DNA from: Nitrospira sp.
Lineage (GTDB): Bacteria > Nitrospirota > Nitrospiria > Nitrospirales > UBA8639
NCBI GenBank assembly: GCA_011523385.1
Contig: WTGX01000023.1
Coordinates: 1 to 64,000 of the forward strand
Reading direction: 5' to 3'
DNA length: 64,000 nucleotides
Made by a program: the position numbers and the translations under genes. Positions 3,971-58,492 of this stretch are shown here, in pieces. Below the pieces are notes generated by a model that was not told where the DNA came from, made no database searches, and saw only the letters and a program-made list of their open reading frames with translations. The first letter of the stretch is position 1, and every line of letters starts with the position of its first letter.

Positions 3971-4135
3971 CACCGCACGCAAAGCCTCTTTCCCTTCTGT
4001 CATCCTTGTATGTGTTCAGCAATTCCCTTCGACAAGCTCAGGACAGGCGTTGACGATGTTCCCGCTTCCTTTTGTGCCCAGTGCCCACGCCTTGGGAAGA
4101 TAACCCCCTCAATCCCCCTTATCAGGGGGACGAAG

Positions 4136-4157
4136 TAGCCGCGCCATCTTATGGCGC
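4136..4157. repeat. GCGCCAT-ATGGCGC palindromic repeat
   Basis: After a GTAGCC lead, positions 4141-4157 read GCGCCAT-CTT-ATGGCGC, a perfect 7-bp stem. The same core, with the outer TAGC arm, is seen twice at 21648-21719. It is a short dispersed intergenic repeat. It lies 3' of purQ, just upstream (on the plus strand) of the convergent gene end, so it could also act as an mRNA-stabilising hairpin. The bases before it (4022-4055) carry another common intergenic motif, GACAAGCTCAGGACAGGCGT, related to copies near 38.2 kb. Confidence 0.7.
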
Positions 4158-4203
4158 TTCGTTTTATCGGCCTCTCCATGCGCGATAAAGCATGAACGGA
4201 GCA

Positions 4204-6663: not shown

Positions 6664-9252
6664 CTAGAATTCAAATTGCCAACCGGCCAGTAAGCCCCAT
6701 GCCGGTTTTGCATACACGTTGTGGCCTGGATTATGCGTCCAGGCCGCATTCAAACGCAGTTCATTCCCATCGGTAAACGGATGGTGCCAGCTTGCCGAAA
6801 CGTCGAACTGCCGGCCGGAGGGTGCCACCGAAGCCGATACAGGTTGTCGCAGCACGGCTCCGTCCTTGGTTCGGCCGACCGGAATGGAGAGGGCCGCCCG
6901 TCCTCCTTCCACGCGCAGGGGCTGTGAGAGCACAATCCGCATCAGGCCGCCATTTGCCAATCGACGCGTAGCGTTGAAGGCAAACGCGCTGGTGGTCAAA
7001 GAGGACATACGGGTTATGATGCCACCGCGAACCTGCGGGTGCGCCTTGCCGATCTCGGCATCAGCGGCAAGGTGCCAGCGGCCGATCTCGAAACTTGTCT
7101 CGATACCCGTCACCGCGGCATCTGCCGAGAGTTGCCCAAAAGCACCGGTGGCCATAGTGCCCAACAAGGTTGCCTGTTCTGCCAACCAGCCCGCACGGAA
7201 GCCGACCGGCACGTCAAACGGCCGCCACGCCAGCGCAATTCCCGAGGTTGGCGATCTGCCCGCAAACCCGGATGCGGTAAACGTCGATAACGACATGCCG
7301 TTGGATCCGGTGAACGTCAGCGTGGTGGCGTTGTCCGCCAACATAAAATGCCCGCCCTCCGGACCGGCGGGTCTCTCCCTGTAGCCGAACCGCAGCATCC
7401 CATACCCGAAAGCCTGTTCGACCGAACCGCCGGCTCGGGCTGGCGTGAACGTCATCAGCCGCCCGGCGGCGCGTCTCGTGACAGGGGACTGCGCCGTCAA
7501 CTCGCGAAGCCGTACCAGTGAAGACGGGCCGCGAGTCGCCCCGGTGAAACCGGACAGTTTGAACCAGAACGGGGCTCCCAGACTGTCGAACGCGGCGATT
7601 TCCTGCCCCGCCAGTGACCGCTCCAGACCGTCGCCCAAGGCTCCGCCGAGCCCGAGACTCGTCATACGGAGATCAACGCCGGCGTCATCGACCGTAGGGC
7701 CAAGAGAAACCGTGGTTTGACCCATGGGCGCGGTTGCAGCCCCGAGGTCCATCATGCCTTGACCATAGATCGCCGCGTTGGCGTACTTGCCTTCTTTCCT
7801 GGCGGTGGCAAAAAGGCGACTGACGATGGCTGTGTTGGAGAGTTGGCCACGAAACTGCTGCTTCATCAGCGCGAGTCCACCAGCAACCATCGGTGCGGCC
7901 AAGGACGTACCGCTGCTCGTGCCGATTCCCCGTTTACCCGGGATGCCGTTTCCGGGGCCGAAATAGGCTACCTCCACGTTAACGCCAGGGGCCGCAATAC
8001 ACCAATCTTTGGCAATCCCACAGCGGTTGGAGAAACCAGCGATATTACCGTTGTTGTCTACGGCTACCGCGGCAATGGAATGCCCCTGCAATTCCGTAAT
8101 TCGCGCGACCAGTCCGGCCAATATCCCCACAGAGCTTGCATTAAGAGACCCGGCCGGGTTTCCATTATTGTCGGTTCGGTCGCTTCCGACACAATTATCA
8201 GCTCCTGGCGTACAAGCCCGGTCATGGTCATTGCCGGCAGCCCAGACAAGAATCGTTTTCTCTTGAACGCCCGCCTGCGCCAACGCATTGATTGTTTGTC
8301 CAAGATTACTCCGGATACCCTGTGCGTCGTAGTTTTCGATGAGTCCTGAAGTGGCAAAGCTCAAATTCAGGATATCCATATCCTGTGCAAGGACCGTGTT
8401 GAAAATTTGCGCATAGTCCCCATCACTTTGGCTCAGGCCGTTCAACGATCTTGGAGCATAAACGTGGTCTCGTGGTGCCGGGTCCCCGAGCGGAATCGCG
8501 AACATCTTCAGGGCGGCACCCCAAGCGATACCCTGAAATCCTTTCCCACGGTCAGTTAGGGCCAGATGGATTGGATCTGCTCCGACGATGCTGGCAACGG
8601 CTGTGCCATGAGAGGAATCGCCGCCAAGCTCATCGGTCGCACCTGTAAGGAGGGTTTCCGATATTGTCGAGCTTCTGAACAAAGGATGATTCGAATCGAT
8701 ACCTGTATCAATGAAACCGACGGTCACGCCAGTGCCCGGTACCACGTTTGATCCTTTGGAAAGTTGAAGATGGGCATAGGCTTCATCCGCGTTAATGGCA
8801 TCCAGTCCCCATTGATTGGAAAAATCCATTGAATTGCTAAAGCCTTGCGCAATTTTTTTGAGTTCCTGACTGTATCTTGAAGGTGAGAGACACCCAAGGT
8901 TGGCTGATTGGATACATGGTGGAGACGGAGATGGAGTCGGCGGTGGTGAAGGTGAATCAGGCGGTGGCCCTGAATCAGGCGGTGCCCCTGAATCGGGTGG
9001 CGACCCTGAATCGGGTAGTGACTCTGAATCGGGTGGTGCCCCTGAATCAGGCGGTGACCCTGAATCGGGTGGTGGAACCGAGCCGGGATCAAAACCACCA
9101 CCGCCGCCACCACCACATGATGAAACAAAAAGGCCAATCAGGAAACAGATGCCTGCAATTTGCAGCCGCCGCAGATCACGCTCCGAACGACAGGCAGGAT
9201 CTAATGCATATCGATTCTGATGAAGCAGACGGCGCCTGTCACTTGTTCTCAT
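6664..9252 (-). CDS. Subtilisin-like lipoprotein autotransporter
   Basis: The 862-residue protein combines a lipoprotein signal, an S8 serine protease and a C-terminal barrel, like NalP-type autotransporters. After a long basic N-terminus, a hydrophobic segment ends in the lipobox FVSSC (Cys46), followed by seven Gly and a Pro-rich hexapeptide repeat (about 58-105). The catalytic triad is visible: Asp182 in GFIDTGID, His215 in DSSHGTAVA, and Ser450 in GTSSGTSLAAPM. From about residue 560 the sequence alternates polar and hydrophobic residues with many Gly and ends in Phe (GWQFEF), as expected for an outer-membrane beta-barrel. The ATG at 9252 is chosen over a TTG six codons upstream. It should display or release a protease at the cell surface. 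The substrate is unknown. Confidence 0.88.
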   Translation of the reverse strand: MRTSDRRRLLHQNRYALDPACRSERDLRRLQIAGICFLIGLFVSSCGGGGGGGFDPGSVPPPDSGSPPDSGAPPDSESLPDSGSPPDSGAPPDSGPPPDSPSPPPTPSPSPPCIQSANLGCLSPSRYSQELKKIAQGFSNSMDFSNQWGLDAINADEAYAHLQLSKGSNVVPGTGVTVGFIDTGIDSNHPLFRSSTISETLLTGATDELGGDSSHGTAVASIVGADPIHLALTDRGKGFQGIAWGAALKMFAIPLGDPAPRDHVYAPRSLNGLSQSDGDYAQIFNTVLAQDMDILNLSFATSGLIENYDAQGIRSNLGQTINALAQAGVQEKTILVWAAGNDHDRACTPGADNCVGSDRTDNNGNPAGSLNASSVGILAGLVARITELQGHSIAAVAVDNNGNIAGFSNRCGIAKDWCIAAPGVNVEVAYFGPGNGIPGKRGIGTSSGTSLAAPMVAGGLALMKQQFRGQLSNTAIVSRLFATARKEGKYANAAIYGQGMMDLGAATAPMGQTTVSLGPTVDDAGVDLRMTSLGLGGALGDGLERSLAGQEIAAFDSLGAPFWFKLSGFTGATRGPSSLVRLRELTAQSPVTRRAAGRLMTFTPARAGGSVEQAFGYGMLRFGYRERPAGPEGGHFMLADNATTLTFTGSNGMSLSTFTASGFAGRSPTSGIALAWRPFDVPVGFRAGWLAEQATLLGTMATGAFGQLSADAAVTGIETSFEIGRWHLAADAEIGKAHPQVRGGIITRMSSLTTSAFAFNATRRLANGGLMRIVLSQPLRVEGGRAALSIPVGRTKDGAVLRQPVSASVAPSGRQFDVSASWHHPFTDGNELRLNAAWTHNPGHNVYAKPAWGLLAGWQFEF
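8953..9078. repeat. Seven 18-bp tandem units in protease linker
   Basis: The hexamer TGAATC recurs at exactly 18-base spacing: 8953, 8971, 8989, 9007, 9025, 9043 and 9061. On the coding (minus) strand each unit encodes a hexapeptide of the form xPPDSG. Because the unit is a multiple of three, gain or loss of units keeps the frame and would only change linker length between the lipid anchor and the protease. Units differ by a few bases, so the array is not brand new. Confidence 0.9.
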
Positions 9253-15100: not shown

Positions 15101-15199
15101 TGTCATTCCCGCGAAAGCGGGAATCCAGTGTCTTTATCCTTCATAAGATGGGAAAAAACAGAGACGCTGGATTCCCGATTAATGATGTCGGGAATGACA
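15101..15199. repeat. Doublet palindromic repeat, copy 2 (before carA)
   Basis: The element opens TGTCATTCCCGCG and closes CGGGAATGACA, with inner inverted copies GGGAATCCAG and CTGGATTCCC. Each end is itself a palindrome, and the whole spans 99 bases. It ends 39 bases before the carA ATG. An open frame runs through it in phase with carA, but this is chance extension, not protein. Confidence 0.9.
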
Positions 15200-21647: not shown

Positions 21648-21719
21648 TTGTAGCTGCGGCATCTTATGCCGCCGGGAGAGGCTGTGGAAAAAAAGCGCCA
21701 TAAGATGGCGCGGCTACAA
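21648..21719. repeat. Two GC(G/C)GCAT-type palindromes in a larger inverted repeat
   Basis: GCGGCAT-CTT-ATGCCGC (21656-21672) and GCGCCAT-AAG-ATGGCGC (21695-21711) are two palindromes in opposite orientation. They are bracketed by TTGTAGC (21648-21654) and GCTACAA (21713-21719). The same module occurs singly at 4136-4157. It lies just after carB, so it could end or protect the pyr mRNA, but there is no T run. Confidence 0.85.
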
Positions 21720-21730
21720 ATAAATAGGTG

Positions 21731-21765
21731 CTACCCCACCTGACCTCCCCTTACAAAGGGGAGGT
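21731..21765. repeat. CCTCCCC/GGGGAGG palindrome, single module
   Basis: CTACCCCACCTGA is followed by CCTCCCC-TTACAAA-GGGGAGG (21744-21764). This module, or its reverse complement with the tail GGTGGGGTAG, recurs near 23.2, 29.6, 41.2 and 58.4 kb, always between genes. Confidence 0.85.
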
Positions 21766-23174: not shown

Positions 23175-23325
23175 CCTCCCCTTTGTAAGGGGAGGCCAGG
23201 TGGGGTAGAGTCGTATACATGAAGCACGGACAACGAACACAATCGGAAGGTTCTTTCTTTGAGTTCGCAATACTAACCGTACCCGCTACCTCCCCTTCGC
23301 CCCTCCTTACAAAGGAGGGGAAAGG
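23175..23325. repeat. Pair of CCTCCCC-type palindromes in opposite orientation
   Basis: CCTCCCCTT-TGT-AAGGGGAGG at 23175-23195 with its tail GGTGGGGTAGAG faces CCCCTCCTTACAAAGGAGGGG at about 23300-23320, whose left flank is CTACCTCCCC. The two modules flank about 100 bases of unique sequence. Upstream, at 23109-23150, are GTCGGGTTACGCTTCGC and the TGTCCTGAGCGTAGTCGAAGG motif. So this 238-base gap holds at least three repeat types and no gene. Confidence 0.8.
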
Positions 23326-25972: not shown

Positions 25973-26066
25973 TGTCATCCTTGCGCACGCGAGGGTCCAG
26001 TGCCGTTCTCCTCGCCACTCGCAGGAAAAGCAAAAACCCCCGGATTCCCGCGTACGCGAGAATGAC
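25973..26066. repeat. Doublet palindromic repeat, copy 3 (bioA-lepA gap)
   Basis: TGTCATCCTTGCGCACGCG at the left and GGATTCCCGCGTACGCGAG with AATGAC at the right form a degenerate inverted doublet of about 94 bases. The core CCAGTG after the left module matches the copies at 15101-15199 and 38317-38399. It lies between the divergent bioA and lepA genes. Confidence 0.75.
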
Positions 26067-29607: not shown

Positions 29608-29695
29608 ATTCCTCCCCTCACCCCTCCTTATCCTTCGGCTCCGCTTCCTTCGCGTTGCTCAGGACAGGCAGGACAGGCAAAGGAGGGGAAGTTGG
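29608..29695. repeat. CCTCCCC-type repeat, divergent or interrupted copy
   Basis: CCTCCCCTCACCCCTCCTTA at the left and CAAAGGAGGGGAAG at the right are the two halves of the CTACCTCCCC...GGAGGGG palindrome. The loop is interrupted by about 50 bases holding CCTTCGGCTCCGC and two GGACAGGCA units, which belong to the separate CTGAGC/GGACAGG repeat family. It looks like one repeat inserted in another. No gene is seen in the 146-base gap. Confidence 0.6.
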
Positions 29696-33782: not shown

Positions 33783-33808
33783 GTCGGATTAAGCTGCGCT
33801 AATCCGAC
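33783..33808. repeat. GTCGGATTA palindrome
   Basis: GTCGGATTA (33783-33791) and TAATCCGAC (33800-33808) are perfect inverted arms around AGCTGCGC. A second copy is at 34429-34454 with loop CGCTTCGC, and a diverged copy near 23109. A half-site TCCGACATTAAC lies at 33585. It is a REP-like intergenic palindrome; here it flanks the two small coiled-coil membrane genes. Confidence 0.85.
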
Positions 33809-34428: not shown

Positions 34429-34454
34429 GTCGGATTACGCTTCGCTAATCCGAC
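34429..34454. repeat. GTCGGATTA palindrome, second copy
   Basis: GTCGGATTA (34429-34437) and TAATCCGAC (34446-34454) flank CGCTTCGC. Same repeat as at 33783-33808. It lies 25 bases before the degQ start. Confidence 0.85.
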
Positions 34455-38031: not shown

Positions 38032-38464
38032 CCCCTTATATGAATTGGGCCATTCTAGGCTTGGCTAAATTGGGGTGTCAATGAAATGCAGGATGGAGGG
38101 CGAATGGATAGGTTGACGGATTCCCTTCGCCTCCACGCTCCCGTTCGTTCTGAGCCTGTCCTGAGCCCAGTCGAAAGGCGTAGCGACAGCGAAGTCGAAG
38201 AACGCTCAGGACAGGCGTTGACAGAATGCGGAAACAAGCCACACCATGTTTGTTATTCTGAGCTTGTCCTGCTTGTCCTGAGCGAAGCAAAGGAACCAAG
38301 CGAGGAATCTCCTTGCTGTCATCCCCGACCCGATCGGGGATCCAGGGTTTTTCTTAATGAAGAAAAAAACACTGGATTCCCGCGTGCGCGGGAATGACAA
38401 TTGAGGCTTATTGGGGATCAACGAACAGCCGTCGTAACGCGCTCCCTTCAGTCAAGGACTTCTC
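38032..38464. repeat. Repeat-filled intergenic region
   Basis: This gap of about 430 bases holds no gene. At 38145-38225 it has several CTGAGC/GCTCAGGACAGGCGTTGAC motifs in opposite orientations, related to 4022-4055. At 38255-38300 there is ATTCTGAGCTTGTCCTG with GTCCTGAGCGAAGC. A doublet palindrome follows at 38317-38399. The stack suggests nested insertion of short repeats at one place. The promoter of the EF-G-like gene must lie at its left end. Confidence 0.75.
38317..38399. repeat. Doublet palindromic repeat, copy 4
   Basis: TGTCATCCCCGACC-CGATCGGGGATCC at the left faces GGATTCCCGCGTGCGCGGGAATGACA at the right, with a spacer that forms its own hairpin (TTTTTCTT-AATG-AAGAAAAA). At 83 bases it is shorter than the 99-base copies at 12974 and 15101, but ends and order are the same. 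Confidence 0.9.
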
Positions 38465-41148: not shown

Positions 41149-41245
41149 CTCTACCTCCCCTCACCCCTCCTTACAAAGGAGGGGAAGCAGCGGGGCATGC
41201 TCGACTTTCCCTCCCCTTTGTAAGGGGAGGGACGGTGGGGTAGAG
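41149..41245. repeat. CCTCCCC-type doublet palindrome
   Basis: The outer ends CTCTACC (41149-41155) and GGTAGAG (41239-41245) are inverted. Inside, CCCCTCCTTACAAAGGAGGGG on the left and CCTCCCCTT-TGT-AAGGGGAGG on the right are palindromes in opposite orientation. At 97 bases it is the cleanest full copy of this family and matches the length of the other doublet family. Confidence 0.9.
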
Positions 41246-54216: not shown

Positions 54217-54286
54217 AATTCAAAGATATGTGAGCAGCCTACCCGTCGCATGCGCTCGTTTGTTGACAATTTCCCCCTCACCCCAA

Positions 54287-54309
54287 CCCTCTCCCGCCGG
54301 GGGAGAGGG
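54287..54309. repeat. CCCTCTCCC hairpin between purL and purF
   Basis: CCCTCTCCC (54287-54295) and GGGAGAGGG (54301-54309) form a nine-bp stem with a short loop, preceded by CCCCTCACCCCAA. It is a common type of intergenic repeat. In the purL-purF mRNA it would form a stable hairpin right after purL but lacks a T run. Confidence 0.75.
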
Positions 54310-58394: not shown

Positions 58395-58492
58395 GCTTGC
58401 TACAAAGGGAGGGGACCGGCAAGGAATGCGTGCCAATCCCTCCCCTTTGTAAGTGGGCGCATTTCCGAAGAGGGAATGCGGGTGGGGTAGGG
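58395..58492. repeat. CCTCCCC-type repeat doublet, diverged
   Basis: GCTACAAAGGGAGGGG on the left and CCTCCCCTTTGTAAG with a later GGGTGGGGTAGGG on the right represent the two modules of the 41149-41245 family in a diverged state, with an insertion of GTGGGCGCATTTCCGAAG in the right one. It lies after the DUF3386 gene. Confidence 0.65.

What the first reader, a model, noticed from the sequence alone, without database searches (positions are those of the whole stretch)
41149..41245. Two repeat families share the same head-to-head doublet plan and length
The TGTCATTCCCG family (four copies) and the CCTCCCC family (41149-41245 and parts near 21.7, 23.2, 29.6 and 58.4 kb) differ in sequence, yet both have two inward palindromic modules with total length 97-99 bases. 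That fits REP/BIME-like elements moved by a RAYT-like transposase, or MITEs. No transposase is in the window.
Basis: partly seen in the sequence, partly recalled or inferred. Interest (0 to 1): 0.55.

Follow-up and report, generated by a model that had tools for sequence, protein, structure and literature searches.

The report
Paired palindromic repeats lacking their transposase
The stretch is one copy of a short hairpin-forming repeat, built from two different inward-facing halves, that is scattered between the genes of a group of Nitrospira-like bacteria; it resembles the well-known REP repeats, but the enzyme thought to move REP repeats is missing from this genome and, where it exists in relatives, sits beside other repeats.

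Summary
The doublet at 41149-41245 is real, far beyond chance, and bounded: a 36-nt module T (+) faces a 36-nt module C (-). The shared 97-99 base plan is only roughly true. Family A doublets come in two arrangements (hairpins inside or outside) and vary in length; family B doublets run 83-114 nt. The unit is the module. A modules pair almost only T with C (own loci 20 of 20; GTDB loci 55 of 56). The genome holds 33 T and 36 C copies. Family B fits the known CGTC-type REPs. Family A is REP/BIME-like in layout but has a different tag and an extra strand beside the hairpin. No RAYT was found in this genome. RAYTs occur in 8 of 13 congeners, flanked by other GTAG REPs, and none of 59 Y1/RAYT loci carries an A module. 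A copy number does not follow RAYT presence. At shared sites modules are 96% identical, spacers 79%, flanks about 87%, so the modules are constrained or homogenised. A derived variant, C*, recurs in 11 contexts, so modules do get copied. Verdict: a new variant of the REP/BIME kind, with an unidentified mobiliser.

The parts
41149..41245 (.). family A inward (HH) heterodimer: T module + 25-nt spacer + C module
   Evidence: same site occupied in G003, G004, G011, absent in G010
41149..41184 (+). T module: tag strand, two free bases, 9-bp hairpin
   Evidence: exact consensus copy; DNA fold of the module
41210..41245 (-). C module
   Evidence: one mismatch to the C consensus
21729..21764 (+). lone C module; the same intergenic slot holds a T-C outward dimer in G004
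23175..23320 (.). outward (TT) A dimer: C module (-) 23175-23210 and T module (+) 23286-23320
   Evidence: absent from the slot in 9 of 9 relatives where it could be read
29611..29690 (+). remnant of an outward dimer (intact in G004 and G011): T module whose loop carries a 48-nt repeat of another family
   Evidence: 99% identical 80-nt copy at G000:C38:44726-44805
58401..58490 (.). degenerate A dimer; its right half 58439-58490 (-) is the C* variant (extra hairpin inside a C module)
15101..15199 (.). family B inward doublet (TGTC-tagged, CGTC-type REP)
38317..38399 (.). family B inward doublet
26045..26064 (+). family B palindrome (right half of a decayed doublet)

Best explanation
Families A and B are REP/BIME-class repeats: short DNA modules that fold as hairpins, usually found as pairs in opposite orientation between genes. 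B belongs with the CGTC-type REPs. A is a separate family made of two module types, T and C, that pair with each other and not with themselves. Shown: copy number, heterotypic pairing, module constraint at shared sites, absence of RAYT from this genome's assembly, and absence of A modules beside the RAYTs examined. Inferred: A was spread as non-autonomous copies by an enzyme acting in trans on the folded single strand, most likely a Y1/HUH-type enzyme that is not linked to A and is not in this genome now. After insertion the modules are inherited with the site and kept uniform by constraint or by exchange between copies. Heterotypic pairing most likely persists because a pair of identical modules would be a near-perfect ~36-bp inverted repeat, which replication and SbcCD-type nucleases tend to remove (an explanation already offered by Di Nocera et al. 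2013 for other REPs).
For: T 33 and C 36 copies in this genome, reversed-pattern control 0 in every one of 59 genomes. T and C rise and fall together across the genus (G004 88/86, G011 105/82, G005 78/64, G003 48/44, G001 0/0, G007 0/0). Own loci: 20 of 20 dimers T-C; 80 GTDB loci: 55 of 56. Of the 30 T copies listed for this genome (of 33), 27 match all 34 fixed bases yet show 10 different dinucleotides at the two free positions: a constraint on sequence. At 12 shared sites (17 pairwise comparisons) modules are 1163/1209 identical, spacers 422/537, flanks 87% on average. The derived C* module recurs in 11 distinct contexts in 4 genomes, so modules are copied as units. B: TGTC tag, ATTCCCGC stem, 4-nt loop, CCA tail, as described for CGTC REPs (PMC3733652).
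Against: No mobilising enzyme was identified and no insertion was read to the base. Congener RAYTs could in principle act on A in trans; G004 and G011, with the most A copies, both have a group-2 RAYT. The module/spacer contrast is affected by ascertainment (only recognisable modules are compared) and 6 of the 17 comparisons share one site. In the wider set of 36 other loci, 5 of 21 pairs were labelled T-T: three pair T with a third related module type, one is a single interrupted T, and one is a real T-T pair by this labelling. MAGs can lack genes, so absence of RAYT in a 38-contig assembly is not proof.
Confidence: 0.6

Rival explanations
1. Family A is an ordinary REPIN-type substrate of the RAYTs found in congeners; the RAYT was simply lost or not assembled in this genome.
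For: RAYT-model matches in 8 of 13 congeners. The RAYT-2 slot is present but holds only ~125 nt in this genome. RAYT loss while REPs persist is known in E. coli (PMC8049555 passages; PMC3733652 section 16).
Against: Congener RAYTs are flanked by other GTAG REPs; A modules in 0 of 59 Y1/RAYT loci, D-type REPs in 14 of 59, some loci overlapping. T+C counts without RAYT match: 0, 0, 22, 69, 92, 142; with: 2, 17, 26, 30, 50, 51, 174, 187. The GTAG of A lies at the wrong polarity and ~10 nt from the stem.
Confidence: 0.18
2. Family A is maintained mainly by recombination between copies (gene conversion, module exchange), with little or no transposition today; a REP family kept alive without any transposase.
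For: Same site in G005 and G004: spacer and both flanks align, but one carries C* and the other C, and the T module differs by a loop insert. G005 against G000 differs in the same way (C* against C) at a second site. Modules are conserved beyond their flanks.
Against: C versus C* at one site could also be an insertion or a deletion. New sites are occupied (23175-23320 empty in 9 of 9 relatives), which conversion alone does not explain.
Confidence: 0.2
3. Family A is a MITE: ends of a lost DDE insertion sequence, moved by a cut-and-paste transposase.
For: 36-nt terminal inverted repeats and a bounded ~97-nt unit.
Against: The two ends differ from each other; outward pairs are at least as common as the inward unit and lone modules occur; no target-site duplication seen. 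Module pairs 250-2500 nt apart do enclose ORFs, but these ORFs were not identified, so this point is open.
Confidence: 0.1
4. The modules are host regulatory or chromosome-organising sites (protein-binding or mRNA 3'-end hairpins) under selection, dispersed by an old process.
For: Module conservation above flanking DNA. Convergent 26 against divergent 16 gene contexts (background 49 against 59; crude ORF calls).
Against: Fast turnover of which family occupies a given intergenic slot; 2 of 13 congeners have none and one has 2 copies; no Rfam family at its gathering score in the five loci tested or over the repeat in the window.
Confidence: 0.12

Closest known systems
CGTC-tagged REPs (Di Nocera et al. 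2013, PMC3733652)
   Same: Family B: C/TGTC tag, ATTCCCGC-type stem, 4-nt loop, CCA tail, inward dimers, no dedicated transposase. Family A shares only the dimer layout and the lack of a linked transposase.
   Different: Family A has no CGTC tag and has an extra strand of ~8 nt between tag and hairpin.
GTAG-tagged REPs with RAYT (REPtrons; same paper)
   Same: A shares module size, inward and outward dimers with 20-100 nt spacers, heterodimers and intergenic location.
   Different: In A the GTAG reads outward at the far end, not beside the stem; A modules flank no RAYT examined. GTAG-type REPs of other sequence are in this window, and their kind flanks congener RAYTs.
E. coli BIME (Y/Z REP pairs; GTAG-3 heterodimers) and REPINs
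   Same: Pairing of two different module types in opposite orientation.
   Different: E. coli has its own RAYT for these in many strains; A's third strand has no counterpart that I know of (recalled).
TIRs of TIRYT genes (same paper, section 16)
   Same: G-rich terminal repeats also found as dispersed dimers.
   Different: Some RAYT-like genes of this order have flanking inverted repeats beginning GGGGTCA or GGGGACA, unlike A.

Membership tests
CGTC-type REP (family B) | C/TGTC terminal tag, 8-9 bp stem starting AT, 4-5 nt loop, CCA tail | tested here: met
   against the description read; one of the two module types has a longer loop
CGTC-type REP (family B) | mostly inward (HH) dimers | tested here: met
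   14 of 16 dimers HH, 2 HT
CGTC-type REP (family B) | not flanking a transposase gene | tested here: met
   B1/B2 in 3 of 59 Y1/RAYT loci, all three being one G013 locus with a lone copy several hundred bases away
GTAG-type REP (family A) | GTAG beside the stem, read into the hairpin | tested here: not met
   GTAG is at the opposite end and polarity, ~10 nt from the stem; the 5' GTAG convention itself is partly recalled
GTAG-type REP (family A) | cognate RAYT flanked by the same repeat | tested here: not met
   0 of 59 loci; 6 loci in four distant A-bearing genomes likewise, where the nearest match is a different family
REP/BIME class in the broad sense (family A) | 20-40 nt palindromic modules, dispersed, intergenic, often paired in opposite orientation | tested here: met
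REPIN (family A) | inward doublet is the replicating unit, RAYT gene in genome | tested here: not met
   no RAYT found in this assembly; outward dimers at least as common
MITE (family A) | target-site duplication | tested here: inconclusive
   intergenic flanks too diverged to read
MITE (family A) | parent insertion sequence with the same ends | not tested
   only Y1/RAYT loci were examined for A ends; other transposase families were not searched

The most novel reading that the evidence does not exclude
Family A is a third class of tagged REP, neither GTAG nor CGTC, with a three-strand module. Each module carries, beside its hairpin, a strand matching the hairpin arm of its PARTNER type: the T side strand CCTCCCCT equals the C stem arm; the C side strand CCCCACCT, or CCCCTCCT in some copies, matches the T stem arm in 7 or 8 of 8 bases. 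It spreads across phyla and is kept uniform without RAYT, by module exchange or an unknown enzyme that reads T-C pairs.
Probability: 0.25. Interest if true: 0.68.

Novelty: new variant of a known kind. Interest (0 to 1): 0.42.

Why it matters
REP repeats are usually explained by RAYT, yet whole classes have no linked transposase. A family whose modules are better conserved than the neighbouring DNA, in genomes with no detectable RAYT, and with a visible marker variant (C*) that tracks copying and possible in-place replacement, makes the question of how such repeats spread and stay uniform directly testable.

Tried and rejected
PF01797 was first used to look for Y1 transposases and gave no match in G010 and G012; the RAYT model and a congener RAYT then found intact genes there, so the Pfam result alone is not used as evidence of absence. 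That GreA and SAM-hydroxide adenosyltransferase between 21731 and 23210 might be cargo of a composite element was rejected: both are ordinary genes, the region is syntenic in relatives, and the modules on either side come and go. Exact empty sites: MAFFT alignments of six slots were too diverged, and some relatives' segments were cut short by my coordinate arithmetic, so no target-site duplication is claimed. Literature search for the module sequences returned 160 papers, 20 listed, none recognisably about bacterial repeats in the listing; searches for REP with Nitrospira listed no description of these families. That is the basis for calling family A undescribed, within an open-access library only. 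Rfam: no family at its gathering score over the repeats. An exact T-module pattern found nothing in viral contigs. One search failed on an index error; the mismatch limit mixed T and C, and its B pattern was wrong, so its T/C tallies are not used and B was redone. Rows left out: one search used 80 of the 107 loci; one search used two-module sites only.

Full report
What is there. The window is contig 19 of a 2.5-Mb, 38-contig genome. The doublet at 41149-41245 consists of two different modules facing inward. T reads CTCTACC TCCCCT NN CCCCTCC TTACAAA GGAGGGG; C reads CTCTACC CCACCT NN CCTCCCC TTACAAA GGGGAGG. Each folds as a 9-bp hairpin with the first 15 bases unpaired, and in the doublet the two CTCTACC ends pair with each other.

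Genome-wide. With up to 3 mismatches this genome has 33 T and 36 C copies; the same patterns read backwards give 0 in all 59 genomes. Of the 30 T copies listed, 27 match every fixed base while the two free bases take 10 different values; for C, 19 of 36 match exactly, 12 have one mismatch, 4 two and 1 three. T and C counts rise and fall together in the genus: G000 33/36, G001 0/0, G002 12/10, G003 48/44, G004 88/86, G005 78/64, G006 19/31, G007 0/0, G008 30/21, G009 0/2, G010 7/10, G011 105/82, G012 21/5, G013 18/12. T occurs in 27 of 59 genomes searched and C in 23 of 59, in several genera of the order. An exact-pattern scan of GTDB genomes stopped at its limit with 107 stretches, mostly Nitrospirales, but also a Deltaproteobacteria MAG (RIFCSPHIGHO2_02_FULL_40_28, four loci), bacterium SKS1.bin41 (two), a Nitrospinota and an Omnitrophota MAG; the last two are short contigs and may be misbinned.

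Pairs. In 30 own loci (the best hits) there are 20 pairs, 9 inward and 11 outward, all T with C. In 80 GTDB loci chosen by an exact T there are 56 pairs, 55 T with C. Inward gaps cluster at 20-22 nt and outward gaps at 41-45 nt. In 36 further loci, mostly from other genera and phyla (some overlapping the set), 21 pairs were seen: 16 T-C and 5 labelled T-T. Of those five, three pair T with a third module type (stem CTCCCCC), one is a single T with an insert, and one is T-T. So heterotypic pairing is strong, not absolute. Di Nocera et al. 2013 (PMC3733652: abstract, parts 1-2 of the text, sections 14 and 16 and found passages read) report the same preference in many REP families and suggest that heterodimers escape removal by SbcCD.

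Family B. Its modules carry TGTC or CGTC, a stem beginning ATTCCCG and a CCA tail. In 30 own loci plus the window, 16 pairs were read: 14 inward, 2 tandem, none of two identical modules, inward length 83-114 nt with median 98. This fits the CGTC REPs, which that paper says apparently lack a dedicated transposase.

Who moves A? Y1_Tnp gives no match in this genome, nor does the RAYT model at E 0.1 or a congener's RAYT at E 1. In the genus, RAYT-model matches occur in 8 of 13 other genomes (G004, G006, G008-G013). The group-1 RAYTs of G008, G010, G012, G013 and the truncated G006 gene are flanked by GTAGGTCGGATTAGCG-type REPs. The group-2 RAYTs sit in one chromosomal slot flanked by and containing other GTAG-type repeats; in this genome that slot holds about 125 nt and no RAYT. 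Of 59 Y1/RAYT loci examined, some overlapping, none has a T or C module and 14 have the GTCGGATTAGCG REP. Four distant A-bearing genomes all have RAYT-like matches below the family cut-off; of six loci fetched there none has a clear T or C module (weak T or C matches exist; in two overlapping loci the same place fits another family far better), though those two carry a pair of a differently sequenced G-rich repeat of similar layout near the gene. A copy number does not follow RAYT presence: T+C is 0, 0, 22, 69, 92, 142 in the six genomes without a match and 2, 17, 26, 30, 50, 51, 174, 187 in the eight with one.

Turnover and constraint. Mapping a 20-kb part of the window onto 13 congeners and reading the intergenic slots shows that one slot can hold A in one species and B, a CCCTCACCCC/CTCTCCC family, a TGTCATCCTGAG family or nothing in others. 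In pooled loci 344 slot comparisons gave 238 empty, 57 with the same arrangement and 49 with a different one; duplicated loci inflate these counts. For 17 comparisons at 12 shared sites, modules are 1163/1209 identical (96%), spacers 422/537 (79%, gaps excluded), flanks 87% on average. The 41149 doublet is shared by this genome, G003, G004 and G011, and absent from G010. Against over-reading: only recognisable modules enter the comparison, six of the 17 share one site, and the 41149 spacer is itself conserved between G000, G003 and G004.

Copying and replacement. A derived module, C*, with an extra small hairpin in place of the 5' arm, is found in 11 distinct contexts in four genomes, this window included (58439-58490); five copies form a direct tandem with a normal C. 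So modules are copied as units. At one site G005 carries C* and a T with a loop insert where G004 carries plain C and T, with spacer and flanks aligned; at a second site G005 has C* and this genome has C. In-place replacement is the reading I favour; insertion or deletion is not excluded.

How it most likely works. Shown: folding (predicted), pairing rule, copying, constraint or homogenisation, no linked RAYT. Inferred: dispersal by an enzyme acting in trans on the folded single strand, then vertical inheritance with occasional exchange between copies. The match between each module's side strand and its partner's stem arm is direct from sequence, but these are C/T-rich 8-mers, so its weight is small.

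Known or new. B is a member of a known kind. A meets the broad REP/BIME description and fails the defining tests of GTAG REPs (tag position, cognate RAYT); it also lacks the CGTC tag. No description was found in the searches, which cover an open-access library only.

Noticed in passing
window 33783-33808 and 34429-34454; 4135-4188 and 21664-21717: Two GTAG-type REP families (GTCGGATTA.. and GTAGCCGCGCCATC..) orphaned in this genome: the first flanks group-1 RAYTs of congeners; repeats like the second flank the RAYT of G009.
   Followed up: partly
window 29611-29690; G000:C38:44726-44805: A 48-nt repeat of another family sits exactly in the loop of a T module, and the chimera is duplicated at 99% identity; similar loop inserts with other sequences in G004, G005 and G010.
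   Followed up: partly
L168:801-926: A ~126-nt dispersed repeat, about 86-94% identical, with some 15 near-full-length matches in this genome and more in G002; not in the window. No Rfam family matched at its gathering score.
   Followed up: no
window 54277-54309: CCCTCACCCC..CTCTCCC hairpin repeat, laid out like A (side strand plus hairpin), occupying the slot where G004 has an A doublet.
   Followed up: no
window 8924-9103: 18-nt tandem repeats, seven overlapping copies, within the span of a long minus-strand ORF.
   Followed up: no
L168 and L173, RAYT gene: Group-2 RAYT genes of G004 and G012 have a GTAG-type repeat pair inside the coding frame with the frame still open.
   Followed up: no
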